A stretch of DNA of 33,164 bases, from NCBI GenBank assembly GCA_903908605.1, contig CAIVSQ010000378.1, forward strand, positions 1-33,164. Direction: 5' to 3'. The notes beneath the pieces are model-generated. The model did not search any database. It was not told the origin of the DNA and saw only the letters and a program-made list of their open reading frames with translations. A program made the position numbers and the translations under genes. This DNA comes from an uncultured Anaerolineae bacterium (GTDB taxonomy: Bacteria; Chloroflexota; Anaerolineae; Anaerolineales; Villigracilaceae). Shown here one piece after another: positions 11,601-33,039 of the stretch (position 1 is the first letter of the stretch; every line of letters starts with the position of its first letter).

Positions 11601-12673
11601 TGGCCTGGCTGGATCAGGCGCGCGCCTGCCGCAGTCAGCTGGCCGACCGGGCCGGGATGGGCCGCATCCAGGTCGAAATCGGCACCGGCTATTTTCAAAA
11701 ATCTGATTACGCCCGCGCGCGCACCGCTCTGGAAGAGGGCCTGGCCCTGGCCCGCGAAACCGGCGACCAACCCGGCACCGCCATGGCGCTCAACTACCTC
11801 GGCAACGTGGCCTTCAGCCTGGGCGAATATCCCGCCGCACAAACCCTGCTGGCCGATGGGCTGGCCCTGCAGCGTGCATTAAAAGACAAGCGCGGCATCG
11901 CCATGTCATTGATCAGCCTGGGCAACCTGGCGGTCGTGCAGGGTGACTACGCCACCGCCCGCACCTGGCTGCAAGAGTGCCTGGCCCTGCGCCGCGAAAC
12001 CGGTGACAAGTTGGCCATCGCCCACGCGCTCAGTTCACTGGGCGTGCTGGCCATCTCGCTGGATGATTACGCCGCGGGCATGCAGTACGAGCTGGAGAGT
12101 TCCTCGATCAAGCTGGAGATCGGCAACCGCACCGGCTATATCACCTCGCTCTCCAACCTGGGCATCGCCGCCCTGGCGCTCGGGCAGTACCCGCAGGCAC
12201 AATCCTATTTTCACGATTGTGCCCAGTTGAGCGAAGAGCTGGGCGACCATTCCACCCTGGGTTACGCCTACCTGGGCCTGGGCATGGTGACTCTGGTCAG
12301 CGGCTCGCTGCAAACCGAGGGCGTCGACGCCGTCCGCGAGCTGATCGGCCGCAGCCTGCGCCTGCGCCAGGAGATCGGCGAACTGCTGCCGCTCACCTCC
12401 AGCCTGGTGGGCATGTCCCTGCTGGCCGCCCAAAGCGGAGCCGCCCGTCTCTCCGCGCAGCTGCTCGGCGCAGTCGAGAGCGGCCTCAAGACCATTCAGA
12501 CGGTGATGGAACCCGAGATGCGCGCCTTCCACACCCAGGCCGCCACCACCGCCCGCGCCGCCCTGGGCGAGCCCGCCTACCAGGCCGCCTGGTCCGAGGG
12601 CGAAAAACTATCCCTCGAACAAGCCACCACCCTGGCCCTCTCAACCCACCCCTGGCCCAAAGCCAACACTTAA
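8669..12673 (+). CDS. Soluble-adenylyl-cyclase-like protein: two class III cyclase domains, P-loop ATPase, TPR repeats
   Basis: A 1334-aa cytoplasmic signalling protein. Cyclase domain 1 (about residues 25-200) has FADISGF with D34 and FAGDSLL with D86, the two metal-binding Asp. Cyclase domain 2 (about 268-435) lacks the first Asp (R276 in its place) but has D385, N388 and R392 in GDEVNLAARL, the adenine and transition-state residues. Together they could build one composite active site, as in animal adenylyl cyclases. A P-loop ATPase follows (Walker A 487-494 AEPGMGKS, Walker B VVIEDLHWLD near 614), then TPR repeats with recurring GDY/GEY..A and LGNLA units from about 900 to 1250. The order is that of mammalian soluble adenylyl cyclase and of known bacterial relatives. 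The product is presumably cAMP, by inference. No strong RBS is visible before ATG 8669; translation may be coupled to the lipoprotein gene. Confidence 0.9.
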   Translation: MQSLSAYLPQDRIRALAQGQSLPDRAHGTALFADISGFTSLTESLREVLGPRRGAEELSRRLEAVYTALIAEIERHGGSVIDFAGDSLLCWFDASLAETGDLAYPISPTPLLAAACGLALQRAMRAFARIPLPNQESIALHIKVAITSGPARRFVVGDPSVHLVDMLAGATITRSATAGELTGRGEILIDEDTAAALGAGAVLGEWRSNPAGTQRFAVLSGLTTQVETPLAMPALHAYLSAQDLLPWLFPALVEREQTGQADFLTEFRPCATLFMRFTGIDYDDENAGARLDAFIRLAEQIVSRHDGTLLQAISGDKGSYAYINFGVLKTHEDDERRAVMTAVELRAASATLGFLDPLQIGITQGTLRTGAYGGQSRKSFSALGDEVNLAARLMTNAAPGEILISGAVHQAVEHDFVIEPRPPLTVKGKAEPLPVFAISAQRRRRAIRLQEPAYTLPMVGRQAELQSIEQKLALALTGQSQIIAIVAEPGMGKSRLVAEIIRAAHRQGFIGYGGSCQSDGIYSPYHAWKNIWTAFFGLDPELPTRKQLRLLEGELDDRAPTRVEALPLLSPLLDIDIPENDFTRGLEPKTRQSALHALLEDCLKSAARETPLLVVIEDLHWLDAVSQDLLEELAQALNNLPVCFVLAHRPPQAGLQRISHLESLPHYSRIELHELSQPECEQAIRAKLAQLYPARAGALPARLVEKLTLRSQGNPFYLEELLNYLRDRGLDPRDPADLEKIELPGSLHTLVLSRIDQLSEREKTTLRVASVIGRLFRADWLAGYYPSLGQVEHVKFDLERLRGLDITPLDTPEPELSYLFKHIVLHEVTYESLPFGLRSQLHEQLARFLERELTAGHLQEAALLDTLVTHYGRSENHTKQREYLRKAGEAAEKSFSNEAALAYYNQLLPLLSAPTEQIAILLQRGAVQQLLGHWDLAETDYLSALAVAQTGRLQATAADAQFALGRLFRLRGDFGQALAWLDQARACRSQLADRAGMGRIQVEIGTGYFQKSDYARARTALEEGLALARETGDQPGTAMALNYLGNVAFSLGEYPAAQTLLADGLALQRALKDKRGIAMSLISLGNLAVVQGDYATARTWLQECLALRRETGDKLAIAHALSSLGVLAISLDDYAAGMQYELESSSIKLEIGNRTGYITSLSNLGIAALALGQYPQAQSYFHDCAQLSEELGDHSTLGYAYLGLGMVTLVSGSLQTEGVDAVRELIGRSLRLRQEIGELLPLTSSLVGMSLLAAQSGAARLSAQLLGAVESGLKTIQTVMEPEMRAFHTQAATTARAALGEPAYQAAWSEGEKLSLEQATTLALSTHPWPKANT

Positions 12674-18753: not shown

Positions 18754-18942
18754 ATGGAAACAGAATTGCCTAAGACTTTCCAGATGCGTTTCGACCTAAA
18801 AAATGAACAGGATCAAAAAATCGCTCACTTTCTACAGCTCTATCCCTGGTCTCGCACGCAGAAAGTGAAGGAAATCCTTCTTGCCTATATTGAAAGCCAG
18901 GAAACTGAAAAGCAATCTACTCCACCCGGGGGAAACCAATGA
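18754..18942 (+). CDS. Small ribbon-helix-helix-like protein, first gene of the defence island
   Basis: A 62-aa protein. A beta-strand-like stretch (FQMRFDLKN, residues 8-16) is followed by two predicted helices (EQDQKIAHFLQLY and RTQKVKEILLAYIESQ), the layout of ribbon-helix-helix DNA-binding proteins such as ParR/MetJ/Arc types. Its stop codon overlaps the start codon of the giant helicase gene as ATGA (18939-18942), so the two are translationally coupled. A likely role is autoregulator of the operon or a DNA-binding adaptor for the helicase. No catalytic residues are evident, and the fold is inferred by eye. Confidence 0.7.
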   Translation: METELPKTFQMRFDLKNEQDQKIAHFLQLYPWSRTQKVKEILLAYIESQETEKQSTPPGGNQ

Positions 18943-21900
18943 ACGTTTTTGACCTGCGAAACAGCCTTGTTGAAGATTATTCATCCTACATCAGCAGCTT
19001 TATCCGCATCAGGGATAAAAAGATCCGCGAATATGTTGAAGAGCAATTAAAAAACGGCTTATTATGGCCCGAATCGCTCATCCAGCTCAACCCGGCCTTT
19101 GAGCCTGGCCACTGGGTCGATGAACTTGTCCAGGAAGGCTTGCTGCATAAAACCTGCGGGGATATCTTCCGGCGTAAAGATGAAAAGAATCCGGGTGGAA
19201 GCCGTTTTCGCTTCCACCGGCATCAGGAAGATGCCATCCGTGTAGCCCAGGCTGGCAATAACTACGTACTCACCACCGGCACAGGCTCGGGCAAATCGTT
19301 ATCCTATATCGTTCCGATTGTGGATTTTGTCCTCAAGCACGGCAGCGGGCGCGGCATCCAGGCCATCATCGTTTACCCAATGAATGCCCTGGCCAACAGC
19401 CAGTTAAATGAATTAAAGAAGTTCCTCAGCCTGGGTTTCCCCGATCGAAAAAGCCCGGTTACTTTTGCGCGCTACACCGGGCAGGAAAACGACGAGGAAA
19501 AAAACCGGATCATGGCCAACCCACCGGACATCCTGCTGACCAACTATGTCATGCTCGAATTGATCCTGACCCGCCCAGGTGAGCGCAAGACCCTGATCAA
19601 TGCCGCCCAGGGGCTGCGCTTCCTGGTATTGGATGAGCTGCATACTTATCGTGGAAGGCAGGGGGCAGATGTTTCCATGTTGGTGCGGCGGGTGCGCAAT
19701 ATCCTCAACACGACCCGGCTGCAGTGCGTCGGTACCTCGGCTACGCTTTCGAGCGCGGGTGGTCTGGAGCAGCAGAAACGCGATGTGGCTGAGGTCGCGA
19801 CCAAACTATTTGGCGATACCGTCCGGCCCGAAAATATTATCGGTGAAACCTTAAAACGCTCTACCAAAGAACTGGATTTCACCCAGCCCCAAAACCTGGA
19901 AGCACTGACGCTGCGCCTGCAGGCCAGTGACCCAATCCCCAACAACTTTGAAGAATTTATTAGCGAGCCGCTGGCAGGCTGGATCGAGGCCACCCTCGGA
20001 CTGCGCAGAGATGAAGAAACCGGCAAACTGATCAGAGCCATCCCGCGCAGCCTGCTAAGCAGGTATGGCAGCGAGCTGGGCAATGGAAAAGAAGGAGCCG
20101 CCAGACTGCTCAGCACAACAACAGGCGTACCTGAAGAAATCTGCTACCAGCGACTCATCCAAACCCTCATGACCGGCTACGACGTCCGCAACCCAGAGAC
20201 CGGTTTCCCGGTCTTTGCCTTTCGCCTGCACCAGTTCATCAGCCGTGGCGATACGGTCTATGCCTCGCTGGAGGCAGAAGATGAACGCTATGCAACGGTC
20301 AACGGGCAAAAATTTGTTCCAAATGATAGAAGTAAGATCTTGCTGCCGCTGGTCTTTTGCCGTGAGTGTGGCCAGGAATATTACGTGGTGCGGAAGTTCA
20401 AAAACGCTGCTGCTCGTCCACAGCAAGATGGTACTGCGGCCAACTGGACAGCATTTGGCCCCCAGGAATTTGATGACAATGCCGAGGATGATAGCAGCGA
20501 AAAAGGCTATCTCTACCTGAATACACTTGAGCCCTGGCTGCCAGAGAATATGCTTGAGAAAATCCCGGAAGAGTGGCTGGAAGAACGAAATGGGAATATG
20601 AGTGTGATCGCCAGCCAGCGCAAAAACCTGCCGGCGCCGTTCAAAATCAATCCCCTCGGGCAGCTAGCAGAGACAGGCATCGAGGTGCAGTTCATCCCCG
20701 GTAAATTCCGCTTCTGCCTAAGCTGCGGGGTCTCTTATAACCCACGCCAGGGCTCTGAATTTTCCAAACTAACTCAACTCAGCTCAGGCGGTCGCAGCAC
20801 CGATACCACCGTGCTGAGCCTGTCATTAATCCGTAACTTGCGGGCAGACCGAACGTTGGTGGAAAAAGCCCGAAAATTGCTCAGCTTTACAGACAACCGC
20901 CAGGACGCTTCGCTGCAAGCCGGGCATTTCAATGATTTTGTCGAGATCGCCATCTTACGCTCTGGCATCTATAAGGCAATTTTAAAAGCCGGTGAGGCAG
21001 GGATTACTCACGAAGTCCTGACCCAACGCATCTTTGATGCGCTCAAATTGGACTTTGCTTTGTATGCCATCGACCCGGATGTGCGCTTTGCTCAAAAAGC
21101 CGAAACCGAACGCGCCCTGCGTGAAATGCTCGGCTACCGCATCTACCGCGACCTCAAACACGGTTGGCGGATCACCTCTCCCAACCTGGAACAATCTGGA
21201 CTGCTTGAAATTCAATATATTTCCCTGGATGAAGTCTGCGACGCACAGGATATCTGGCAGGATGCCCATCCGGCCCTGGCAGGAGCCAGCCCGCAAACTC
21301 GTCAAAATATCAGCAAGGTACTGCTGGATTTTATGCGCCGGGAGCTGGCCATCAAGGTCGATCACCTGAACCAGAATTACCAGGAAGGTATAAAACTCCT
21401 TAGCAACCAAAAACTAAAAGAACCCTGGAAAATTGACGAAATTGAGAAATTCGAGCATGCTTCCATTTTGTTCCCTCGCAAAAAAGGACATGCGCGCGGT
21501 GAAGATTACCTTGGCAATGTTTTCCTTTCCGGGCAGGGTGGCTACGGCCAGTTCTTACGGCGTCGCAAGAATTTTCCCGATTTCCAAGCCAAACTAACCG
21601 TTGAAGATGCCCAGGAAATGATCCGTCAAATCCTGGAGGCCTTGCGCGTGGGCGGACTGGTGGAAATTGTGCAGGAAGCCAAAAAAGAAGATGAAGTGCC
21701 TGGTTACCAGGTCCCCGCTTCGGTGATGATCTGGAAAGCCGGCGACGGTCGAAAAGCCTTCCATGACCAGATCCGCGTGCCACGCCAGCCGGAAGAAGGC
21801 GGGCGTACCAACCAGTATTTTGTCGATTTTTACCGCTCCATCAGTAGTGACATGTATGGGTTATCAGCCCACGAGCACACCGCCCAGGTGCCGGCCAACA

Positions 21901-24179
21901 TCCGCCAGGAACGTGAAGACCTCTTCAAAGAGGCCAAGCTCCCCATCATGTACTGCTCCCCGACCATGGAGCTGGGTGTCGATATCTCCGAGCTGAATGC
22001 CGTCAACATGCGCAATGTCCCGCCCACCCCGGCCAACTATGCCCAGCGCAGCGGTCGTGCCGGGCGCAGCGGCCAGCCAGCCCTGGTCTTTACCTACTGC
22101 ACCATGGGCAGCCCACATGACCAGTATTACTTCAAACGTCAAAACCTGATGGTCGCGGGCGCAGTGACACCCCCCCGCCTTGACCTGGTTAATGAAGATC
22201 TGGTAAAAGCACACGTCCATTCCATCTGGCTGGCTGAGTCGGGGCTGGACCTGCAGCGCTCGCTCAAAGACCTGCTCGATCTCTCCGGCGATGACCCGTC
22301 CCTGGAGGTGCTTGATTCGGTCAAGGATGCGCTCAATTCAGATGGGATCCGCGCAAAAGCCCGCTTGCGCGCGCAAAGCGTACTAAAAACCATCGAGGTG
22401 GAGCTGGCCAGAACCGATTGGTACAGGGATACCTGGCTGGAAGCTACCCTGAACCACGTCCCGCTCGATTTCGACCAGGCCTGCAAGCGTTGGCGCACCC
22501 TTTATCGCGCCGCCAAGGGACAGCAAAAGACCCAGCAGCGCATCATCGACGATATGTCGCGCTCGGCCGATGACCGTAACCTGGCCAGGCGTTTGCGCAA
22601 CGAAGCCGAGAGCCAGATCGAACTGCTGACCGATTCAGAGAACCTGATTCAGTCCGATTTCTATTCCTACCGCTATTTTGCCAGCGAAGGCTTCCTGCCC
22701 GGTTACAGCTTTCCGCGTCTGCCGCTTTCTGCCTTTATCCCCGGCCGGCGCATCAAAGACAAAGACGAATTCCTGTCACGCTCGCGCTTCCTGGCCATCT
22801 CTGAGTTCGGGCCGCGCTCGATCATCTATCACGAAGGCTCACGCTATATCATCAACAAGGTCAACCTGCCGGTTTCGGAAAGTGGTGATGGACTGGTCAC
22901 CAACCGCGCCAAGCAGTGCCCGGTCTGCGGTTATTTCCATGTTATCAGCGATGGCGATGGCCCTGACCGCTGCCAGCGCTGCGATGCCCTGCTCGATATC
23001 CCCCTGGTGTCCCTCTTCCGCCTGCAAAATGTCTCCACCAAACGCCGTGACCGAATCAGCTCTGACGAGGAAGAACGCATGCGCCAGGGCTTTGAACTGC
23101 GCACCGCCTTCCGTTTCCAGGATAACCAGGCCGGTGAGCCCGCCGCTCAATCGGCCAAACTAATGAAGGATGATCAAGAGCTTGCCACGCTGACCTATGC
23201 CAGCGCAGCCTCGCTCTGGCGCATTAACATGGGCTGGAAGCGCCGAAAAGACCCCACCCAATTTGGGTTTATGCTCGATATTGAGCGCGGCTACTGGGCC
23301 AAGGAAAACGACAAGACCGACGAAGGGGATGACCCGATGTCAACCCGCACCATGAAGGTCATTCCCTTTGTGGAAGACACCAAGAACTGCCTGATCTTTG
23401 AACCGCACAGCCAGCTGCCACTCGAACAAATGGCCAGCCTGCAAGCTGCGCTCAAGTCAGCCATCCAGGTAGCCTACCAGCTTGAAGATAATGAGCTCTC
23501 TGCAGAACCGCTGCCCTCCACTGATGATCGCAAACTGATCCTGTTCTACGAGTCAGCCGAGGGCGGGGCTGGCGTGCTGCGCAGGTTAATGGATGACTCT
23601 AGCGCCTTCGCCAGTGTCGCCCAGACGGCCCTGGAGCTGTGCCACTTTAACCCGCTCACCGGCGAAGATTTACGCAAGGCCGAAAATGCCGTCGAAGACT
23701 GCGAGGCTGCCTGTTACAACTGTCTGATGAGCTACTTCAACCAGATGGAACACCGCCTGCTAGATCGCCAAATCATCAAGGACGTGCTGATTGAATTGAG
23801 CGGTACCCAGGCAAAAATTTCACCATCGGCCCTCTCGCGCGCCGAGCATCTCAAGCGGCTGCGCGCCCAGTGCCAGTCTGACCTGGAACGTAATTGGCTC
23901 GATTTTATCGAAAATCGCAGCCTCAGCCTGCCCTCACACGCTCAAAAACTGATCGAGAGCTGCGCCACCCGCCCAGACTTCTTATATGAAAAAGACTGCC
24001 TGGCCATCTACGTCGACGGCCCGCATCATTTATACCCAGAGCGTGCTCAACGCGATGCCGCCCAGACCCGTTGCCTCGATGATATCGGCTACAGCTACCT
24101 GCGCTTTGGGTTGCAGGATGATTGGGAGCAGGTAATCAAAAAAGCACCGCATGTGTTTGGGAATAGCGGGCAGGCTTAA
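18939..24179 (+). CDS. Giant DEAD/DEAH helicase with DUF1998 and a C-terminal Vsr-like nuclease domain
   Basis: A 1746-aa predicted defence helicase-nuclease. The first RecA domain has Walker A TGTGSGKS (residues about 113-120), YPMNALANSQ, DELH (232-235) with HTYRGRQGADV, and GTSAT (about 264-268). A large insertion carries a Cys pair CRECG (474-477) and CLSCG (593-596). The second RecA domain has ELGVDISELN and motif VI QRSGRAGRSG (about 1036). A zinc ribbon lies at 1327-1348 (CPVCG, CQRCD). DUF1998 follows with YESAEGGAGVLRRL (about 1535) and Cys 1568, 1588, 1592 and 1595. The last ~80 residues match Vsr/DUF559-type endonucleases: PDFLY with D1680, YVDGPHH at 1691-1697, then RDAAQTRCLDDIGYSYLRFG. 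DruE of Druantia and DrmA plus DrmB of DISARM are the nearest named relatives; the nuclease fusion is atypical. RBS GGGGGAAA. Confidence 0.88.
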   Translation: MNVFDLRNSLVEDYSSYISSFIRIRDKKIREYVEEQLKNGLLWPESLIQLNPAFEPGHWVDELVQEGLLHKTCGDIFRRKDEKNPGGSRFRFHRHQEDAIRVAQAGNNYVLTTGTGSGKSLSYIVPIVDFVLKHGSGRGIQAIIVYPMNALANSQLNELKKFLSLGFPDRKSPVTFARYTGQENDEEKNRIMANPPDILLTNYVMLELILTRPGERKTLINAAQGLRFLVLDELHTYRGRQGADVSMLVRRVRNILNTTRLQCVGTSATLSSAGGLEQQKRDVAEVATKLFGDTVRPENIIGETLKRSTKELDFTQPQNLEALTLRLQASDPIPNNFEEFISEPLAGWIEATLGLRRDEETGKLIRAIPRSLLSRYGSELGNGKEGAARLLSTTTGVPEEICYQRLIQTLMTGYDVRNPETGFPVFAFRLHQFISRGDTVYASLEAEDERYATVNGQKFVPNDRSKILLPLVFCRECGQEYYVVRKFKNAAARPQQDGTAANWTAFGPQEFDDNAEDDSSEKGYLYLNTLEPWLPENMLEKIPEEWLEERNGNMSVIASQRKNLPAPFKINPLGQLAETGIEVQFIPGKFRFCLSCGVSYNPRQGSEFSKLTQLSSGGRSTDTTVLSLSLIRNLRADRTLVEKARKLLSFTDNRQDASLQAGHFNDFVEIAILRSGIYKAILKAGEAGITHEVLTQRIFDALKLDFALYAIDPDVRFAQKAETERALREMLGYRIYRDLKHGWRITSPNLEQSGLLEIQYISLDEVCDAQDIWQDAHPALAGASPQTRQNISKVLLDFMRRELAIKVDHLNQNYQEGIKLLSNQKLKEPWKIDEIEKFEHASILFPRKKGHARGEDYLGNVFLSGQGGYGQFLRRRKNFPDFQAKLTVEDAQEMIRQILEALRVGGLVEIVQEAKKEDEVPGYQVPASVMIWKAGDGRKAFHDQIRVPRQPEEGGRTNQYFVDFYRSISSDMYGLSAHEHTAQVPANIRQEREDLFKEAKLPIMYCSPTMELGVDISELNAVNMRNVPPTPANYAQRSGRAGRSGQPALVFTYCTMGSPHDQYYFKRQNLMVAGAVTPPRLDLVNEDLVKAHVHSIWLAESGLDLQRSLKDLLDLSGDDPSLEVLDSVKDALNSDGIRAKARLRAQSVLKTIEVELARTDWYRDTWLEATLNHVPLDFDQACKRWRTLYRAAKGQQKTQQRIIDDMSRSADDRNLARRLRNEAESQIELLTDSENLIQSDFYSYRYFASEGFLPGYSFPRLPLSAFIPGRRIKDKDEFLSRSRFLAISEFGPRSIIYHEGSRYIINKVNLPVSESGDGLVTNRAKQCPVCGYFHVISDGDGPDRCQRCDALLDIPLVSLFRLQNVSTKRRDRISSDEEERMRQGFELRTAFRFQDNQAGEPAAQSAKLMKDDQELATLTYASAASLWRINMGWKRRKDPTQFGFMLDIERGYWAKENDKTDEGDDPMSTRTMKVIPFVEDTKNCLIFEPHSQLPLEQMASLQAALKSAIQVAYQLEDNELSAEPLPSTDDRKLILFYESAEGGAGVLRRLMDDSSAFASVAQTALELCHFNPLTGEDLRKAENAVEDCEAACYNCLMSYFNQMEHRLLDRQIIKDVLIELSGTQAKISPSALSRAEHLKRLRAQCQSDLERNWLDFIENRSLSLPSHAQKLIESCATRPDFLYEKDCLAIYVDGPHHLYPERAQRDAAQTRCLDDIGYSYLRFGLQDDWEQVIKKAPHVFGNSGQA

Positions 24180-24203
24180 ATATTTTTAGACCACCAGATC
24201 GTT

Positions 24204-24266
24204 CACCACAAAGGTCATGAAGAACCACCAAGAAAACCTTTGTGCCTCTTTGTGTCCTTCGTGGTG
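24204..24266. repeat. Inverted repeat, island family copy 1
   Basis: A 63-bp imperfect palindrome starting CACCACAAAGG and ending CCTTCGTGGTG, lying 24 bp after the helicase stop codon. It shares CCACCAAGAAAACC and TTTGTG segments with the copies at 29332-29401 and 29418-29487. It could act as a transcription or mRNA-stability boundary between the helicase and the downstream genes. Confidence 0.75.
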
Positions 24267-24301
24267 ACTCGTTTTTAACACAGGGCAGATACGCGTACCG
24301 G

Positions 24302-24310
24302 TGCTACAAT
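24302..24310 (+). promoter_or_regulatory. Possible internal promoter (extended -10)
   Basis: TGCTACAAT lies 22 bp before the ATG at 24333, which has a CAGAGGAAA RBS. No clear -35 is present. If active it would give the downstream genes their own transcription start after the inverted repeat. Confidence 0.4.
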
Positions 24311-24332
24311 ATTATTCAGAGGAAATTGATCC

Positions 24333-24863
24333 ATGTTAACAGCCGGGCAGTTGGAAAAAGAAGAACGTTTGGTTGCCGAACTGGAGGTCATGGGGATCCG
24401 TTACCTATCCCGCCTGACGGCCACCCAGGTCAGGCACCTGCGATCTCCACAGCAAATGTTGACCGATCTGGTAAAACAGCCCAGCAGCCGCGTCCGCACG
24501 GCTGTGATTGCCATTTTTCTTTTACATCCTGATTTCTGCGAAGCCCTGCCAGGCGCACTGGATGGTTTATCACCGCAAGATCAGCAAACACTCAAGTTCT
24601 TTTACACCGCGGCAGTCTATTTGCAGCGCAAACATGATGCCCGGCTGCAGTTATATGTGGGAGATCGTTGGCGTCAGCTTCCAGATCTATTCCAGCAGGA
24701 ATTTTCCTTCCAACCGCAGGCTTCCCCAGATGAGCTGCTCCGCCAGCTCGGCATAAAACAACGCGAGCAAACCGGCATCGTGGCCAATTGGGCGGGTACT
24801 TACGAAAACGTGGCTCATCATTTACTGCGCAGTTGGGAATTGGGGCAAAAATGGAGCCAGTAA
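24333..24863 (+). CDS. Unknown 176-aa protein of the defence island
   Basis: A soluble, helix-rich 176-aa protein that I cannot assign to a named family. Visible features are an N-terminal helix (QLEKEERLVAELEVMGI), a repeated Leu-rich helical middle (LLHPDFCEALPGALDGL, TLKFFYTAAVYLQRKHD) and a C-terminal NWAGTYENVAHHLLRSWELG. It has a good RBS. Its stop codon lies inside the start of a broken nucleotidyltransferase gene (13-bp overlap), an arrangement typical of two-gene toxin-antitoxin or adaptor pairs. It may be the partner (antitoxin or substrate) of that nucleotidyltransferase; this is a positional inference. Confidence 0.75.
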   Translation: MLTAGQLEKEERLVAELEVMGIRYLSRLTATQVRHLRSPQQMLTDLVKQPSSRVRTAVIAIFLLHPDFCEALPGALDGLSPQDQQTLKFFYTAAVYLQRKHDARLQLYVGDRWRQLPDLFQQEFSFQPQASPDELLRQLGIKQREQTGIVANWAGTYENVAHHLLRSWELGQKWSQ

Positions 24864-25069
24864 CTTCCGCCATCCTGAAAAATTTTCTCAGCCAGCTCGG
24901 AGAACGCCTTCCCGCGCCAGCCTCGCTTTACCTTTTGGGCGGCAGCGCCCTGGGGATGGGTGGGCAGATCGCATCAATAAAATTCTCAAGGGCTACCTTA
25001 TGCCAGATGCGCGTAAACCAAACGAACTGTTTTGTTGAGACCGATTTTGAGCATAAGTTCAAAGCATAA
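24851..25069 (+). pseudogene. Remnant of a nucleotidyltransferase (DUF6036-like) gene
   Basis: A 72-codon frame starting at ATG 24851 within the end of the previous gene. The first ~38 residues (FLSQLGERLPAPASLYLLGG then SALGMGG) match the start of MNT-type or AbiEii-like nucleotidyltransferases, whose GGSA motif is here at residues 30-33. The catalytic D-x-D/E pair expected about 10 residues later is absent; the frame instead continues as unrelated residues and ends at 72 aa, where intact relatives are 150-250 aa. An internal deletion shortly after the GGSA motif explains this best. Confidence 0.65.
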
Positions 25070-25103
25070 TCATTAATTTTCAGTTGGGAAGAGGTCCGAA
25101 TAC

Positions 25104-27950
<2,847 letters not shown>

Positions 27951-27953
27951 AAG

Positions 27954-28787
27954 ATGAAAAACAAACCAGCCGAATGTCGCTTTTACTTTGTAGATGAAGC
28001 CGGAGATACAACTCTCTTTGGGCAGCGTGGCAAGGTTTTAATTGGCGAGGAAGGTTGTTCACGTTTTTTTATTTTGGGCGTTCTGGATATTCCTGACCCG
28101 CTTTCGCTTGAACTGGAATTGAACACTTTACGCCAGGCTTTGCTGGCTGACCCTTATTTCAAAAAAGTGCCATCCATGCAACCAGAAGCGCGCAAAACTG
28201 CTCTGATGTTCCACGCCAAAGACGATGTGCCAGAAGTGCGGCGCGAGGTGTTTGCCTTGCTGCAAAAGCACGAACTTCGATTTTTGGCAGTTGTACGCGA
28301 CAAACAAAAAGTTTTGGAATATGTCCGGAAGCGCAATATGCTCGATCTTGATTATCGCTATACACCAAATGACCTGTACGATTATATGGTCAGGGTGTTA
28401 TTCAAAAATCTCCTGCACCAGGACGAACGTTACGAAATTTACTTTTCGAAGCGTTGGAAACAGGACCGCACCGAGGCACTGGGGCTGGCATTAAAAACGG
28501 CGCAAGATCGCTTTGCCCAGCAGTGGGGTATTGTTCACTCGCCTGAGATTAAGGTTATTCCCAAAAATTCTCATGAGAGTGGTGGATTCCAGGCGGTCGA
28601 TTATTTTTTGTGGTCATTGCAACGATTTTATGAACGCAGAGAAGATCGTTACCTTGATTTACTGTGGAAATCCTTTCGGCTGGTGCATGACTTGGACGAT
28701 ACACGAACAACCCCGTATGGCGTATATTACACACAAAAAAAGCCGCTAAATATAGCGGCTTTGGAAAATTACTTGCCAGGGATATAG
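27954..28787 (+). CDS. DUF3800 domain protein
   Basis: A 277-aa protein. The N-terminal strand YFVDEAGDTTLF has D14-E15 of the DUF3800 signature (D-E-S/A-G), a family with an RNase H-like fold. The C-terminal motif QAVDYFLWSLQRFYE places D216 in the other conserved acidic position, followed by RYLDLLW. The fold and acidic residues suggest a metal-dependent nuclease, but activity is unproven for most members. It starts 3 bp after the SNF2 helicase stop, with the RBS inside the end of that gene (GTGTGAAAG), so it is part of the same transcript. DUF3800 proteins often occur in defence or mobile contexts; here it may be an effector or accessory nuclease. Confidence 0.88.
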   Translation: MKNKPAECRFYFVDEAGDTTLFGQRGKVLIGEEGCSRFFILGVLDIPDPLSLELELNTLRQALLADPYFKKVPSMQPEARKTALMFHAKDDVPEVRREVFALLQKHELRFLAVVRDKQKVLEYVRKRNMLDLDYRYTPNDLYDYMVRVLFKNLLHQDERYEIYFSKRWKQDRTEALGLALKTAQDRFAQQWGIVHSPEIKVIPKNSHESGGFQAVDYFLWSLQRFYERREDRYLDLLWKSFRLVHDLDDTRTTPYGVYYTQKKPLNIAALENYLPGI

Positions 28788-28916
28788 AACTGAACTGACC
28801 GTAGTCAGACAATTACACGGCCTGAAGCCGAACTTTGTCCACTGGCTATTAAATTATAGCACAAAGGTACAATTGAAAGCAAATCTATCCTAACCCTATC
28901 ACTCAGTTTATGGATT
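28788..28916. other. Short AT-rich gap between DUF3800 and GxxExxY genes
   Basis: Contains GGTACAAT at about 28866-28873, possibly a -10 for the next gene, and on the minus strand TGTGCTATAAT at about 28853-28863, an extended -10 that would point back across the DUF3800 gene. Both are weak on their own. No gene. Confidence 0.3.
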
Positions 28917-29369
28917 ATGCCAAACGTCGCTTTAACTTATAAACCTATGGACATCGAAGAAATTGGCAAACAAATAGTAGACTCGACCATCCTGGTCCAC
29001 CGTGCCCTCGGACCTGGCTTGCTTGAATCCGCCTACCAGGCCTGCCTGGCCTACGAACTGCGCCAGCGCGGCCTGCACGTCGAAACCGAAGTACATCAGC
29101 CTGTCCTCTATGATGGCCAGCAACTGGACGCTGGTTACCGACTGGATATGCTTGTGGAGCACACCGTCATCATCGAAAACAAAGCCGTAGAAACCCTCCT
29201 GCCCATCCACGAAGCCCAACTGCTCACCTATCTCAAGTTGAGTGGTTTATGGCTTGGTTTCTTAATCAATTGGAACACGGTCAGGGTAAAAGAGGGAATT
29301 AAACGAATGGTCAACGGGCAAAAACCGTTTTACCACGAAGAACACAAAGAGCCGCTAAGAAAACCTTAA
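28917..29369 (+). CDS. GxxExxY protein (PD-(D/E)XK-like small protein)
   Basis: A 150-aa protein, or 140 aa if translation starts at the second ATG (28947, MDIEEIG), which fits family N-termini better; neither start has a good RBS. The name motif is in GPGLLESAY, with G, E and Y in the right spacing. The nuclease-like core YRLDMLVEHTVIIENKAVE and the LLTYLKLSGLWLGFLINW strand-helix follow, as in the family. Proteins of this family usually end soon after GIKRMVNG; here the frame runs on through YHEEHKEPLRKP, which is encoded by an inverted repeat that begins at 29332. The role is unknown; members occur near defence genes and repeats in many genomes. It separates the DUF3800 gene from the methyltransferase. 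Confidence 0.88.
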   Translation: MPNVALTYKPMDIEEIGKQIVDSTILVHRALGPGLLESAYQACLAYELRQRGLHVETEVHQPVLYDGQQLDAGYRLDMLVEHTVIIENKAVETLLPIHEAQLLTYLKLSGLWLGFLINWNTVRVKEGIKRMVNGQKPFYHEEHKEPLRKP

Positions 29370-29401
29370 AAACACTTCGTGTTCCTACGTGCCTTCGTGG
29401 T
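29332..29401. repeat. Inverted repeat, island family copy 2 (overlaps the GxxExxY 3' end)
   Basis: Exactly 70 bp, with ACCACGAAG at the left end and CTTCGTGGT at the right end, and an inner GCTAAGAAAACCTTAAAAACAC. The left arm supplies the last codons and the stop of the GxxExxY gene. A second 70-bp copy follows 16 bp later. Confidence 0.85.
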
Positions 29402-29417
29402 AAAAACAAAACCTTGA

Positions 29418-29487
29418 ACCACGAAGCACACAAAGAGCCACCAAGAAAACCTTAAAAAACCTTTGTGTTTCTTTGTGTCTTCGTGGT
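29418..29487. repeat. Inverted repeat, island family copy 3
   Basis: Exactly 70 bp, with arms ACCACGAAGCACACAAAGAG and TTTGTGTCTTCGTGGT around CCACCAAGAAAACC. It is very similar to copy 2 and to the copy at 24204-24266. It lies between the GxxExxY gene and the methyltransferase gene. Confidence 0.85.
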
Positions 29488-29560
29488 AAATGAATTTTTC
29501 GTGCCTTCGTAGTAAATGAATTTTTCGTGCCTTCGTAGTAAATGAATTATTTTTCGTGGT
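29488..29560 (+). repeat. Tandem 26-bp repeats before the methyltransferase gene
   Basis: Two identical 26-bp units (29488-29513 and 29514-29539; AAATGAATTTTTCGTGCC then TTCGTAGT) and a shortened third (29540-29560). The unit is a duplicated right arm of the inverted repeat. The methyltransferase start codon follows 14 bp later, so a change in copy number would alter its leader. Confidence 0.85.
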
Positions 29561-29574
29561 AAAAAGAGAGTCAC

Positions 29575-32500
29575 ATGCAAACTCGCACCCGCAACCCCTT
29601 CACCACCATCCACACCGAAGGCGCACTGCTGCCCTCTGATTTGCTTCAGCGCATCCTGGATTACGACAAAAGCCTGCCAGGTCTCACGCCAGAAGCCTAT
29701 CACCTCTCAGGCGAGAAACTCAACGAAGCCATCAACCGCTCGTGGAACCGGCTGCAGGGAGCCTGGGCCGCCTTCAGCACATCACGCAACCGCCTGGGTG
29801 AAAGCGACGCCGCTACAGGGTTGACTCGCGATCGTTGGCTCTACCCTCTTTTTGACGAATTGGATTTTGGACGCCTGCAGCCTGCCAGGGGCCTGGAAAT
29901 TGACGGCAAGCCATACGCCATCTCGCACCTGTGGACGGCGGTGCCGATCCACCTGGTCGGCTGTGGCGTTGACCTGGAGAAGCGCTCGGCTGGCGTGGTG
30001 GGCGCTTCCAAAGCCAGCCCGCACAGCCTGCTGCAGGAATACCTCAATCGTTCGCCAGAATCGCAATGGGGCATTGTCTCCAACGGATTGCGTCTGCGCG
30101 TGCTGCGCGATAACGCCACCCTCACCCGCCAGGCCTTCCTCGAATTTGACCTGGAAGCCATGTTCGATGGTGAAGTCTATGCCGATTTTGCCCTGCTGTG
30201 GCTGATCTGCCACCAATCCCGGCTGGAAGTAGCAGAAGGCGCAAGCGAATGTGCGCTCGAACAATGGTCAAAATCTGCCCAGGATCAGGGTACCCGCGCG
30301 CTAACCAAGCTGCGCGCCGGCGTGGAGCAAGCCATCGCCGCCCTCGGCAGCGGCTTCTTAAAGACCCAATCCAACCAGAAATTGCGCGGCGACCTGCGCT
30401 CTGGCGCACTGGCCACCCAGGATTACTACCGCCAGCTGCTCCGGCTGGTCTACCGCCTGATCTTCCTCTTTGTGGCCGAAGACCGCGACCTGCTCTTTGA
30501 CCCGGCCTCCACCCCCAAAGCGCGCGAACGCTACCTCAAATACTACTCGCTCCAGCGCCTGCGCCGCCTGGCCGCCCGCAACCGCGGCAGCCGCCACCCG
30601 GACCTATATGAGTCGCTCAAGCAAGTCATGGATCTATTGGCCGGGACATCCGCCAAGGAAGAATCGCGCCTGGCACTGGGCTTACCCGTCCTGGGCGGCT
30701 TTCTCTTCTCCGATGCCGCCCTGCCCGACCTGGATGCAGCCGAACTGGAAAACGAAAGCCTGCTGACCGCCCTGCGCCACCTGACCCAGATCGAGGAAGG
30801 CAGCACCCGCCGCGCCGTCGATTACAAAAACCTCGGCTCCGAAGAACTGGGCGGCATCTACGAAAGCCTGCTCGAACTGCACCCACTCATCAACACCGAC
30901 TCAGCCTCCTTCCAGCTCACCTCGGTGGCTGGCAACGAACGCAAAGAAACCGGCAGCTACTACACCCCCTCCAGCCTCATCCAGGTCCTGCTCGATTCGG
31001 CCCTCGACCCGGTCATCGAGCAAGCATTGGAAAGTGCAAAAACTTTAACCACAAAAGACACAAAGGGAGAAAATGAAAATCCAGGCCCTACTTCGTTCTC
31101 CTCTGTGACCCTTGGTGATCTTCGTGGTTCAAAAGAATTAGCCCTGCTGAATCTTAAGGTTTGCGACCCGGCCTGCGGTTCCGGCCACTTCCTGGTGGCT
31201 GCCGCACACCGCATCGCCCGCCGGCTGGCCCAGCTGCGCACCGGCGAAGGTGAACCCGCCCCCGAAGCCATGCGCACCGCCCTGCGCGAGGTGATCAGCC
31301 ACTGTATTTACGGTGTCGATATCAACCCCATGTCGGTTGAACTGTGCAAGGTCAGCCTGTGGATGGAAGCGATCGAACCGGGCAAGCCGCTCTCCTTCCT
31401 GGATGCGCACATCCAGTGTGGCAACAGCCTGGTGGGGGTTGGCCCCAAAATGGACATCAACACGCTGGAGATCCCGGACGAAGCCTTCAACCCGGTCACC
31501 GGCGATCACAAGCCCACATCCTCCCTGCTAAAAAAGCGCAACAAGCAGGAACGTGCCGGGCAGGAAAGCCTGTTTATCACCCTGCTCAAAACCCAGGAAG
31601 ACCTGGAGGCCTGGCTGGCCGGGCGTGCCCGCGCCGTGGAAGTCATGCCAGAAGACAGCCCCGAGCAGGTGCAAGCCAAAGCCCTGGCCTACCGGCAGGT
31701 GAACGAATCTGCCCAGTACCAGAAACAGAAACAGATCGCCGACCTGTGGACAGCGGCCTTCTTCTGGCCAATCAAGGAACCCAAAACCGCCTCCTACGAA
31801 CTCAGTGCTCCCACCCAGGGCCAACTGCGCCGCCTGCGCGCGGGCAGTCAGAACCAACCCGGGCTGCAGGACGAAGTAAAGCGTTTGAGCCAGGAAGTAA
31901 ACTTCTTTCACTGGCCCCTTGCTTTTCCGGACGTGAACGCCCAGGGAGGTTTTGACTGCATCCTCGGCAACCCGCCCTGGGAAAGAATCAAGCTGCAGGA
32001 AGAAGAGTTTTTTGCCGCGCGTGATCCCAATATCGTCCTGGCAGCCAACAAAGCCGCCCGGCAGCGACTGATTGACAGCCTGCCACAAACCAACCCGACC
32101 CTGGCCCTTGATTTTGAAAATGCCAAACATGCCGCCGAGTGTTCATCCAAGTTTGTGCGCATCTCCAATCGCTATAAATTGACCGCCGTTGGCGATGTTA
32201 ACACCTACGCCCTTTTCGCCGAGCACGGCCGTGACCTGGCGTGCGGACGCACTGGCATTATCCTGCCGACCGGCATTGCCACCGATGACACCACCAAAGA
32301 CTTCTTTGGCGACCTGGTGGAAAAGCGCTCGATTGCCTCGCTCTTTGACTTTGAGAACCGTGAAGCAATTTTCCAGGGTGTTCACCGAAGTTATAAATTC
32401 TGCCTGCTGACCCTTTCCAGCCAGCCGGTCCAGACCAGCGAATTTGTCTTTTTCGCCACGCGCACCCAACACCTGCAAGACCCACGCCGCCGTTTTTCGC

Positions 32501-33039
32501 TTGCCCCGGCCGAAATTGCGCTCTTCAACCCCAACACCCGCACCATGCCCGTCTTCCGCACCCGCCAGGATGCCGAATTGACCCGCAAAATTTACCAGCG
32601 CGTACCAGTTCTCGAAAACGAGCGCACCGGGCAAAACCCGTGGGGTGTACGTTTTTTGCGAATGATTGACATGTCAAATGACAGCGGCCTGTTCAGTGAC
32701 CAGCCACGGGAGGGATATGTTCGTTTATTTGAAGGGAAAATGGTTCAGGCGTATGATCATCGTGCTGCTGGTGTTATGACAATCGTCGAAAATTTAAAGA
32801 GACCTGGACAACCAGTTGATACATCGCTTGGCGAACATCAGAATCCAAAATTTCTACCTAAACCACAATATTGGGTGTCAGAAATAATTGTTAGGGAAAG
32901 AATCCTTAGCAAAACTCCTAATTGGTTCATAGGATTTAAAAGCGTAACTAGTTCGACAAACGAACGAACATTTATTTCTACTTTATTACCTTTTAGCGGT
33001 GTGGGGAACTCAATGCCAATAATATTAGCTAAAGTGTAA
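29575..33039 (+). CDS. Eco57I-like N6-adenine DNA methyltransferase (class I/PglX-like), C-terminus probably truncated
   Basis: A 1154-aa protein with an AGAGAG-type RBS. After an N-terminal helical region (about residues 1-460) comes GSYYTPSSLIQVLLD, then SAM-binding motif I D531-PACGSG537-HFL, motif X-like features, and motif IV N799-PPW802 (ILGNPPWERIK), typical of gamma-class adenine-N6 enzymes of Eco57I, PglX and DrmMI types. Its job would be to mark host DNA for the island's helicases or nucleases. Two oddities are visible. A palindromic repeat is inserted in frame at residues about 491-518. From about 32650 the DNA becomes AT-rich with different codon choice, and the protein stops after GVGNSMPIILAKV, where relatives continue with a conserved FDYVARQK-like segment and ~150 more residues. 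I infer exchange or loss of the target-recognition end. Confidence 0.85.
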   Translation: MQTRTRNPFTTIHTEGALLPSDLLQRILDYDKSLPGLTPEAYHLSGEKLNEAINRSWNRLQGAWAAFSTSRNRLGESDAATGLTRDRWLYPLFDELDFGRLQPARGLEIDGKPYAISHLWTAVPIHLVGCGVDLEKRSAGVVGASKASPHSLLQEYLNRSPESQWGIVSNGLRLRVLRDNATLTRQAFLEFDLEAMFDGEVYADFALLWLICHQSRLEVAEGASECALEQWSKSAQDQGTRALTKLRAGVEQAIAALGSGFLKTQSNQKLRGDLRSGALATQDYYRQLLRLVYRLIFLFVAEDRDLLFDPASTPKARERYLKYYSLQRLRRLAARNRGSRHPDLYESLKQVMDLLAGTSAKEESRLALGLPVLGGFLFSDAALPDLDAAELENESLLTALRHLTQIEEGSTRRAVDYKNLGSEELGGIYESLLELHPLINTDSASFQLTSVAGNERKETGSYYTPSSLIQVLLDSALDPVIEQALESAKTLTTKDTKGENENPGPTSFSSVTLGDLRGSKELALLNLKVCDPACGSGHFLVAAAHRIARRLAQLRTGEGEPAPEAMRTALREVISHCIYGVDINPMSVELCKVSLWMEAIEPGKPLSFLDAHIQCGNSLVGVGPKMDINTLEIPDEAFNPVTGDHKPTSSLLKKRNKQERAGQESLFITLLKTQEDLEAWLAGRARAVEVMPEDSPEQVQAKALAYRQVNESAQYQKQKQIADLWTAAFFWPIKEPKTASYELSAPTQGQLRRLRAGSQNQPGLQDEVKRLSQEVNFFHWPLAFPDVNAQGGFDCILGNPPWERIKLQEEEFFAARDPNIVLAANKAARQRLIDSLPQTNPTLALDFENAKHAAECSSKFVRISNRYKLTAVGDVNTYALFAEHGRDLACGRTGIILPTGIATDDTTKDFFGDLVEKRSIASLFDFENREAIFQGVHRSYKFCLLTLSSQPVQTSEFVFFATRTQHLQDPRRRFSLAPAEIALFNPNTRTMPVFRTRQDAELTRKIYQRVPVLENERTGQNPWGVRFLRMIDMSNDSGLFSDQPREGYVRLFEGKMVQAYDHRAAGVMTIVENLKRPGQPVDTSLGEHQNPKFLPKPQYWVSEIIVRERILSKTPNWFIGFKSVTSSTNERTFISTLLPFSGVGNSMPIILAKV
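31047..31129. repeat. Inverted repeat copy 4, inserted in frame in the methyltransferase gene
   Basis: The left arm AACCACAAAAGACACAAAGG and the right arm CCTTGGTGATCTTCGTGGTT are imperfect complements of the island repeat family. It is translated as TTKDTKGENENPGPTSF and a following SVTLGDLRG stretch, residues absent from relatives, which pass directly from the upstream helix to LKVCDPACGSG. Confidence 0.75.

What the first reader, a model, noticed from the sequence alone, without database searches (positions are those of the whole stretch)
18754..33039. Defence island with DISARM-like logic but non-standard composition
Seen: a giant DEAD/DEAH-DUF1998 helicase, a DrmD-like SNF2 helicase, an Eco57I/PglX-like adenine methyltransferase, a DUF3800 protein, a GxxExxY protein and an RHH-like leader gene, all on one strand. 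Known: class 1 DISARM pairs DrmD, a methyltransferase, DrmA helicase, DrmB (DUF1998) and DrmC (PLD nuclease); Druantia uses DruE, a giant helicase with DUF1998. Here helicase and DUF1998 are one protein, a Vsr-like nuclease is fused to it, and no PLD gene is seen. This may be a merged or ancestral form, or a distinct system.
Basis: partly seen in the sequence, partly recalled or inferred. Interest (0 to 1): 0.85.

Follow-up and report, generated by a model that had tools for sequence, protein, structure and literature searches.

The report
ARMADA antiphage operon with inserted passengers
A bacterial operon of two large DNA helicases and a DNA methyltransferase belongs to the recently described antiphage kind called ARMADA type I, so it is not a new system, but several of its small extra genes look like insertions, one of them linked to what may be an undescribed family of hairpin-shaped mobile DNA.

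Summary
In detail: on one strand lie a 62-aa leader, a 1746-aa YprA-family helicase (DEAD, MZB/DUF1998, C-terminal DUF559/Vsr-like nuclease), a SNF2 helicase, DUF3800, GxxExxY and an Eco57I/PglX-like methyltransferase. The core is co-conserved: in 80 named loci SNF2 follows the helicase in 61 of 64 with room and the methyltransferase follows in 54 of 55; in a phylum sample 22 of 37 and 19 of 19. The helicase lies in a 37-row clade apart from DruE, DrmA, MrfA and three ARMADA II helicases. Gene set, order and fused nuclease match ARMADA type I (PMC12458937, 2025 preprint). Unexpectedly, three hairpins lie between the operon's genes and one in frame inside the methyltransferase. GxxExxY genes elsewhere sit between inverted 9/10-bp tandem repeats, and one junction is empty or filled in related genomes: probably a mobile element family.

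The parts
18754..18942 (+).
   Evidence: coding by substitution pattern 8/3/24 against the copy on C146; no family match
18939..24179 (+). YprA-family helicase-nuclease (homologous to ArmC of type II): DEAD, inserted region, Helicase_C, MZB/DUF1998 zinc domain, DUF559/Vsr-like nuclease
   Evidence: motifs GSGKS, DELH, QRxGRAGR and the four zinc cysteines in 11 of 11 rows, PDF...DG nuclease motif in 8 of 11
24202..24268 (.). ORF-less hairpin repeat (9-bp units) in the gap after the helicase
   Evidence: 63.9 bits; this copy was in the model
24333..24863 (+). 176-aa all-helical protein, first gene of a pair with a DUF6036 nucleotidyltransferase (accessory)
24851..25069 (+). truncated remnant of the DUF6036 nucleotidyltransferase (38 N-terminal residues, 61% identical to L112's gene, then no similarity)
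25104..27950 (+). SNF2 / BrxHII-RapA-like helicase (ArmA-like)
27954..28787 (+). DUF3800 protein, accessory, matched in no other locus examined
28917..29369 (+). GxxExxY (PDDEXK_3) gene, probably cargo or enzyme of a mobile hairpin element
   Evidence: this copy itself lacks matched arms
29329..29404 (.). hairpin repeat overlapping the end of the GxxExxY gene
   Evidence: 76.2 bits; in the model
29415..29490 (.). second hairpin repeat between GxxExxY and the methyltransferase
   Evidence: 78.8 bits; in the model
29575..33039 (+). Eco57I/PglX/DrmMI-like adenine methyltransferase (ArmB-like), C-terminus missing at the contig end; the last ~130 bp of the window do not agree with contig C559
31045..31131 (.). 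hairpin repeat inserted in frame inside the methyltransferase gene, absent from the methyltransferase on C174
   Evidence: 39.0 bits; not in the model

Best explanation
An ARMADA type I antiphage operon (YprA-family helicase-nuclease, SNF2/BrxHII-like helicase, PglX-like methyltransferase) in an uncultured bacterium, with accessory genes and mobile hairpins inserted in its two intergenic gaps. Shown here: gene content, order, co-conservation, helicase clade, conserved motifs. Inferred: the methyltransferase marks host DNA with N6-methyladenine; the SNF2 protein translocates on or clamps DNA and passes unmarked DNA to the YprA helicase, which unwinds it under its zinc canopy and cuts it with the fused Vsr-like nuclease, a direct, non-abortive restriction as reported for ARMADA type II. 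DUF3800, the 176-aa gene with its truncated nucleotidyltransferase partner, and GxxExxY are passengers, not needed for the core.
For: Core co-conservation: of 80 named loci, SNF2 directly downstream on the same strand in 61 of 64 with 2 kb of room, methyltransferase next in 54 of 55; of 40 phylum loci 22 of 37 and 19 of 19; the two sets share a few contigs. Tree of 48 helicases: the window inside a 37-row clade (SH-aLRT 100); two DruE, five DrmA, MrfA and three ARMADA II helicases outside. Paper: order, C-terminal Vsr nuclease, phage protection and need for each of the four genes in type II. Motifs intact in the window. In the named set the core genes are usually tightly spaced: helicase-SNF2 gap at most 150 bp in 49 of 61, SNF2-methyltransferase in 44 of 54.
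Against: No type I ARMADA was tested for phage defence in the sections of the paper that I read; the mechanism is carried over from type II, which has a fourth essential gene (ArmD) not found here. The paper's type I reference (WP_108720193.1) was not at hand, so the clade's identity rests on gene order and architecture. The BrxA-like insertion could not be confirmed: model of residues 278-965 with pLDDT 82.7, no PDB match at E <= 0.001. 15 of 37 phylum loci lack a downstream SNF2 (of their upstream flank about 3 kb or less was held; 3 show a methyltransferase upstream, one a SNF2 on the other strand). Tree: quick method, no bootstrap, long branches flagged; L171, ARMADA II by gene order, is the sister of the 37 rows (81) and does not join the other two type II rows.
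Confidence: 0.82

Rival explanations
1. A merged or ancestral DISARM/Druantia form, or a divergent Druantia III.
For: PADLOC's best helicase profile is DruE3 (324 bits, in pieces); the SNF2 and methyltransferase match DrmD (298) and DrmMI (259).
Against: A DruE3 with its DruH neighbour scores 1953 bits on the same profile; the window helicase stands apart from both DruE and the five DrmA in the tree; no separate DrmB-, PLD- or DruH-like gene was shown among the 7 island ORFs (PADLOC lists of three proteins capped at 25 rows).
Confidence: 0.04
2. A distinct variant in which DUF3800, GxxExxY, the 176-aa gene and the leader are working parts.
For: All are co-directional and some closely packed; GxxExxY lies between SNF2 and methyltransferase in window, L059, L063 and L112; the nearest named relative L112 shares the 176-aa gene too (50% identical).
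Against: DUF3800 matched in none of 41 and 80 loci; the second copy in the same assembly has an Abi_2 gene where the window has the 176-aa gene; the nucleotidyltransferase is truncated; GxxExxY genes are linked to mobile-looking repeats.
Confidence: 0.1
3. A decaying, non-functional copy.
For: The methyltransferase ORF ends early, a hairpin sits in its frame, the nucleotidyltransferase is broken; in contig C559 a DUF559 ORF interrupts the methyltransferase's C-terminus in frame.
Against: The early stop lies in a contig tail not supported by C559; the insertions keep the frame, and the C-terminal one falls where some other homologues carry insertions too; helicase motifs are intact; between the two copies the leader's changes are mostly at third positions.
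Confidence: 0.1
4. A Dpd-type (7-deazaguanine) system, since PADLOC names the SNF2 protein DpdE.
For: PDLC02853 'DpdE' matches over residues 3-947 at 882 bits.
Against: The next DpdE profile reaches 152 bits; NCBIfam DpdE 189 against a cut-off of 500; no dpd synthesis gene among the 17 window ORFs scanned. That the profile was built from ARMADA-like proteins is my guess.
Confidence: 0.02

Closest known systems
ARMADA type I (Bell et al., bioRxiv 2025, PMC12458937)
   Same: Gene set and order YprA - BrxHII/RapA-like - PglX-like methyltransferase; fused C-terminal Vsr-type nuclease; MZB/DUF1998 in the same protein
   Different: Extra genes in both gaps (176-aa gene with truncated partner; DUF3800, GxxExxY), a leader ORF and hairpin repeats, none mentioned in the sections read
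ARMADA type II (E. coli plasmids; L180, L172)
   Same: Three homologous core proteins
   Different: Order SNF2-MTase-YprA-UvrD there; the RelE-UvrD protein ArmD is not among the window's island ORFs
DISARM class 1
   Same: SNF2 and methyltransferase relatives (DrmD, DrmMI)
   Different: DrmA and DrmB are separate there; no PLD nuclease found here; helicase outside the DrmA group
Druantia type III (L183)
   Same: Giant YprA-family helicase as closest profile
   Different: No DruH found; DUF559 rather than PLD nuclease; methyltransferase and SNF2 present here

Membership tests
ARMADA type I | YprA helicase first, then BrxHII/RapA-like helicase, then PglX-like methyltransferase | tested here: met
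   same order in relatives
ARMADA type I | C-terminal predicted active Vsr-type nuclease on the YprA protein | tested here: met
   DUF559 23.2 bits against cut-off 20.6; PDF...DG motif in the window and in 8 of 11 aligned rows, lost in L049, L058, L059; activity itself not tested
ARMADA type I | helicase in the type I clade of the YprA tree | tested here: inconclusive
ARMADA type I | BrxA-like insertion after RecA1 | tested here: inconclusive
   no significant PDB match; the weak matches include winged-helix regulators
ARMADA type II | RelE-UvrD (ArmD) after the YprA gene; order SNF2-MTase-YprA | tested here: not met
   no UvrD match in the 7 island ORFs, and another gene order; sequence beyond the contig end not known except for contig C559's first 6 kb, of which only the methyltransferase was examined
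DISARM class 1 | separate DrmA and DrmB, PLD nuclease DrmC | tested here: not met
   helicase and MZB in one ORF, no PLD match among 17 scanned ORFs; DrmA profile 51.6 bits only
Druantia III | DruE with DruH; helicase in the DruE clade | tested here: not met
TALON / BRIGADE | NERD nuclease, TBP and TPR-CSD (TALON); deazaguanine cluster (BRIGADE) | tested here: not met
   no such Pfam match in the 17 window ORFs scanned; the TPR ORF at 8669-12673 carries cyclase and AAA domains

The most novel reading that the evidence does not exclude
The GxxExxY gene and the four hairpins of this operon belong to an undescribed family of mobile hairpin elements. Their arms are inverted runs of 9/10-bp units; the small form is a bare hairpin of about 70 bp and the large form carries a GxxExxY (PD-(D/E)XK) gene in the loop, so this protein would be the element's own enzyme. 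A sister group with 7/8-bp arms carries the four-helix protein known from 23S rRNA intervening sequences. They settle between and, in frame, inside operon genes, including this defence operon.
Probability: 0.6. Interest if true: 0.75.

Novelty: new member of a known kind. Interest (0 to 1): 0.42.

Why it matters
It settles what the island is, shows ARMADA type I order across many phyla (a type for which I saw no phage test), and shows that its two gaps take up other defence and toxin-antitoxin-like genes, including the type II component ArmD in 5 loci. The larger prospect is the side result: if GxxExxY (in 35 of 151 genomes of the phylum sampled) and the 23S IVP protein (47 of 151) are enzymes of repeat-armed hairpin elements, two common families would gain a role that can be tested directly.

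Tried and rejected
Druantia, DISARM, Dpd, TALON and BRIGADE membership: see the membership table. PADLOC's DpdE name for the SNF2 protein: judged a profile artefact. The 1154-aa methyltransferase as a complete short form: rejected, the ORF ends in a contig tail that C559 does not support. The 176-aa protein by fold: confident all-helical model (pLDDT 91.2), no PDB match at E <= 0.001. A DruE profile search in 201 genomes of the phylum gave nothing anywhere, controls included, so it shows nothing. Paper searches: DISARM/Druantia/DUF1998 and ARMADA (of the hits only PMC12458937 was read, the others seen as listings); DUF6036 (none); GxxExxY or its accessions (three papers, passages read in PMC8934634 and PMC12085832, neither passage about mobile elements; PMC9756366 seen as listing only); S23/intervening sequences (listing; PMC4990558 seen as abstract and outline); short tandem repeats (listing only).

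Against the mobile-element reading: the window's own GxxExxY copy has no matched arms on its two sides (score 18; shuffle maximum 25); L112 is at background (25 against 27); Sphingomonas has one arm only (16 against 22). Against mismatched flank pairs of other GxxExxY loci, a stricter null because loci share repeats, only 11 of 28 exceed the 99% value. At the genus junction the arm scores were 33, 21, 13, 10, 10 for the five GxxExxY copies and 9-27 for the 16 of 19 IVP copies where one was computed, that is mostly at background. Of the 19 hairpin pairs some are broken in up to 4 of 10 sequences. No movement was seen, and the library searched does not show that nobody has described it.
Full report
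WHAT IS THERE. The island at 18754-33039 has seven ORFs on the + strand. Pfam, PADLOC and NCBIfam identify a 1746-aa helicase with DEAD, Helicase_C, MZB and C-terminal DUF559 domains, a 948-aa SNF2 helicase, DUF3800, GxxExxY/PDDEXK_3 and an Eco57I-type methyltransferase. The leader has no family match but looks coding, since its differences from the second copy fall 8/3/24 on the three codon positions.

NAMING. A recent preprint (PMC12458937; abstract, all three parts of section 4, sections 12, 14 and 26 read) names ARMADA: YprA-family helicases encoded with a BrxHII/RapA-like helicase and a PglX-like methyltransferase. Type I is generally arranged YprA, BrxHII-like, PglX-like, and the YprA protein ends in a predicted active Vsr-type nuclease. 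That is what stands here. Type II carries a fourth gene, ArmD, and was shown to protect E. coli; [quoted passage not shown] I saw no phage test of type I in these sections; the supplements were not open to me.

CO-CONSERVATION. A search of 400 genomes of the phylum found matches at E <= 1e-60 in 65; the 20 other genomes of the window's own family that are listed had none. The phylum is Chloroflexota by inference: contigs L026 and L055 have the lengths and match positions of L116 and L117, titled Chloroflexi. I took 40 of the listed matches with their flanks. Of these, 37 had 2 kb downstream; SNF2 follows on the same strand in 22, and the methyltransferase follows in 19 of the 19 with room. Misses are L140, L145, L162 (no SNF2) and L129 (no methyltransferase). 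The 15 phylum misses are the more distant helicases; three show a methyltransferase upstream, as in the reversed order that the paper describes, and one a SNF2 on the other strand. The two sets share a few contigs.

TREE. In a 48-row tree (quick method, SH-aLRT only) the window helicase is next to the second copy of its own assembly, then to L112 (Chloroflexota), inside 37 ARMADA-like rows (100). Two DruE, five DrmA, MrfA and three ARMADA II rows lie outside. The type II labels are mine, from gene order in annotated records. The program warned of long branches; L171, type II by order, is the sister of the 37 rows at 81, apart from L180 and L182.

SECOND COPY AND CONTIG END. Contig C146 of the same assembly holds the leader (87% identical), helicase (90%) and SNF2 (93%), and contig C174 a whole methyltransferase 81% identical to the window's; that C174 belongs with C146 is inference. 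The assembly is estimated at 6.4% contamination, so the copies may come from two organisms. In place of the 176-aa gene C146 has an Abi_2 gene (178.5 bits). The window's methyltransferase stops at 33039, but the 13 homologues aligned over its whole length are 1335-1508 aa, and contig C559 overlaps window 32948-33032 by 85 bp at 97.6% and continues the protein. There, a DUF559 ORF (125 bits) interrupts it in frame at a place where L121, L040, L058 and L059 also carry extra sequence; 28 of the 36 segments that my pattern caught have the plain length of 36 residues.

ACCESSORY GENES. Gaps over 400 bp occur in 11 of 61 helicase-SNF2 and 10 of 54 SNF2-methyltransferase junctions of the named set. 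Their ORFs include Fic, Mrr_cat, SIR2_2, REase-ARP, AAA_21, nucleotidyltransferases, 23S IVP, PIN genes on the other strand and unknown genes; in L096, L103, L114, L115 and L135 I saw no convincing gene. Phylum loci add BrnT, PemK, GxxExxY and IVP. Five of 118 loci (L099, L111, L122, L143, L156) hold an ArmD-like RelE-UvrD gene between helicase and SNF2; L041 and L042 have weak matches (26-28%) upstream on the other strand. L111's is 37% identical to E. coli ArmD over 693 columns. The paper's text that I read gives ArmD to type II only. The 176-aa gene is found in 25 of 301 phylum genomes, the window's own included. Of 19 such loci, 15 have a DUF6036-like nucleotidyltransferase match just downstream on the same strand, and in seven the two are one protein (L196, L197, L199-L202, L204). 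In L112 the transferase is whole (Pfam DUF6036 42.9 bits); in the window only 38 N-terminal residues of it remain.

MECHANISM. Conserved helicase motifs, zinc cysteines and the nuclease motif and DPACGSG and GNPPW in the methyltransferase (seen in the sequence) fit a modify-and-restrict scheme: methylate host DNA, and unwind and cut unmarked DNA. This is inferred from type II and from MrfA and DrmA as told in the paper; PDB relatives by sequence include YprA/MrfA 6znp (70.9 bits) and 9tu7 (144.4 bits). Structure prediction of residues 278-965 gave no significant PDB match, so the BrxA-like domain stays untested.

HAIRPINS AND GxxExxY. A 19-base pattern hits the window five times with up to 3 mismatches where 100 shuffles gave none. 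These are arms of hairpins at 24202-24268, 29329-29404 and 29415-29490, and of one in frame in the methyltransferase, 31045-31131, which a covariance model built without it finds at 39 bits; C174's methyltransferase lacks it. GxxExxY genes of the phylum (31 loci given, 28 usable, the window's own among them) have inverted flanks: median score 38.5, 26 above the 99% shuffle value; 23S IVP genes (30 given, 28 usable) 30.5 and 21; controls BrnT (30 given, 26 usable) 17.5 and 2, and the 176-aa gene (20) 17.0 and 0. Against mismatched pairs of GxxExxY flanks 11 of 28 pass the 99% value. Periodic flanks show units of 9/10 bp in 28 of 30 for GxxExxY (56 flanks) and 7/8 bp in 40 of 43 for IVP (56 flanks); for BrnT 7 of 52 flanks were periodic. 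Outside the phylum, arms are present in Gemmatirosa, Bacteroides and Bernardetia and one-sided in Sphingomonas, where the gene lies between fabD and fabG; 4 of 7 plasmid hits were examined.

EMPTY SITES. The DNA around one GxxExxY gene (G005) was sought in 57 genomes of its genus; 53 matched somewhere. I fetched 40 junctions (G420 and G441 were left out by oversight, G018 and G416 are split over contigs, others showed one flank or none). Five hold GxxExxY, 19 an IVP gene, 15 no gene (29-174 bp) and one is unclear. By eye about nine of the 15 carry a bare hairpin of 9-bp units, and two (G419, G332) have only 29 bp. The arm scores of the filled copies at this junction are mostly at background (see Tried and rejected). 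The hairpin alignment of 10 sequences has 19 pairs, 5 with changes on both sides. The model matches 13 times in the window's genome and 10-70 times in five others, counted per strand, members of the model included, with 150 of 1157-2510 candidates scored per genome. Bare, GxxExxY and IVP forms at one site are best explained by mobility.

VERDICT. ARMADA type I, a new member of a known kind, with accessory genes and mobile-looking hairpins inserted. The claim of a new defence composition fails; the side result on GxxExxY deserves its own study.

Noticed in passing
window 24202-24268, 29329-29404, 29415-29490, 31045-31131: Hairpin repeats with inverted arms of 9-bp units, one in frame in the methyltransferase; GxxExxY genes elsewhere often sit between such arms, and one genus junction is empty, bare-hairpin, GxxExxY or 23S IVP.
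   Followed up: partly
L264-L293 (flanks of 23S_rRNA_IVP genes): Four-helix 23S IVP genes are flanked by inverted arms of 7/8-bp units (21 of 28 usable loci above the 99% shuffle value), up to 22 matches per genome.
   Followed up: partly
L099, L111, L122, L143, L156: ArmD-like RelE-UvrD gene, a type II component in the paper, between helicase and SNF2 in type I operons.
   Followed up: partly
L086:3-1421 (contig C559): Likely continuation of the window's methyltransferase, with a DUF559 ORF inserted in frame; some other homologues have insertions at the same spot.
   Followed up: partly
window 24333-25069: 176-aa gene plus DUF6036 nucleotidyltransferase: a conserved, sometimes fused pair; no paper in the library holds the word DUF6036; the partner is truncated here.
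   Followed up: partly
L005 (C146) and L079 (C174): Second copy of the operon in the same assembly, with an Abi_2 gene in the first gap; only the operon itself matches the window.
   Followed up: yes
window 25104-27950: PADLOC profile PDLC02853 named DpdE matches this ARMADA SNF2 protein over its whole length (882 bits), a possible source of false Dpd calls.
   Followed up: no
window 8669-12673: 1334-aa ORF with a guanylate cyclase-type domain, AAA_16 and TPR repeats, not part of the island.
   Followed up: no
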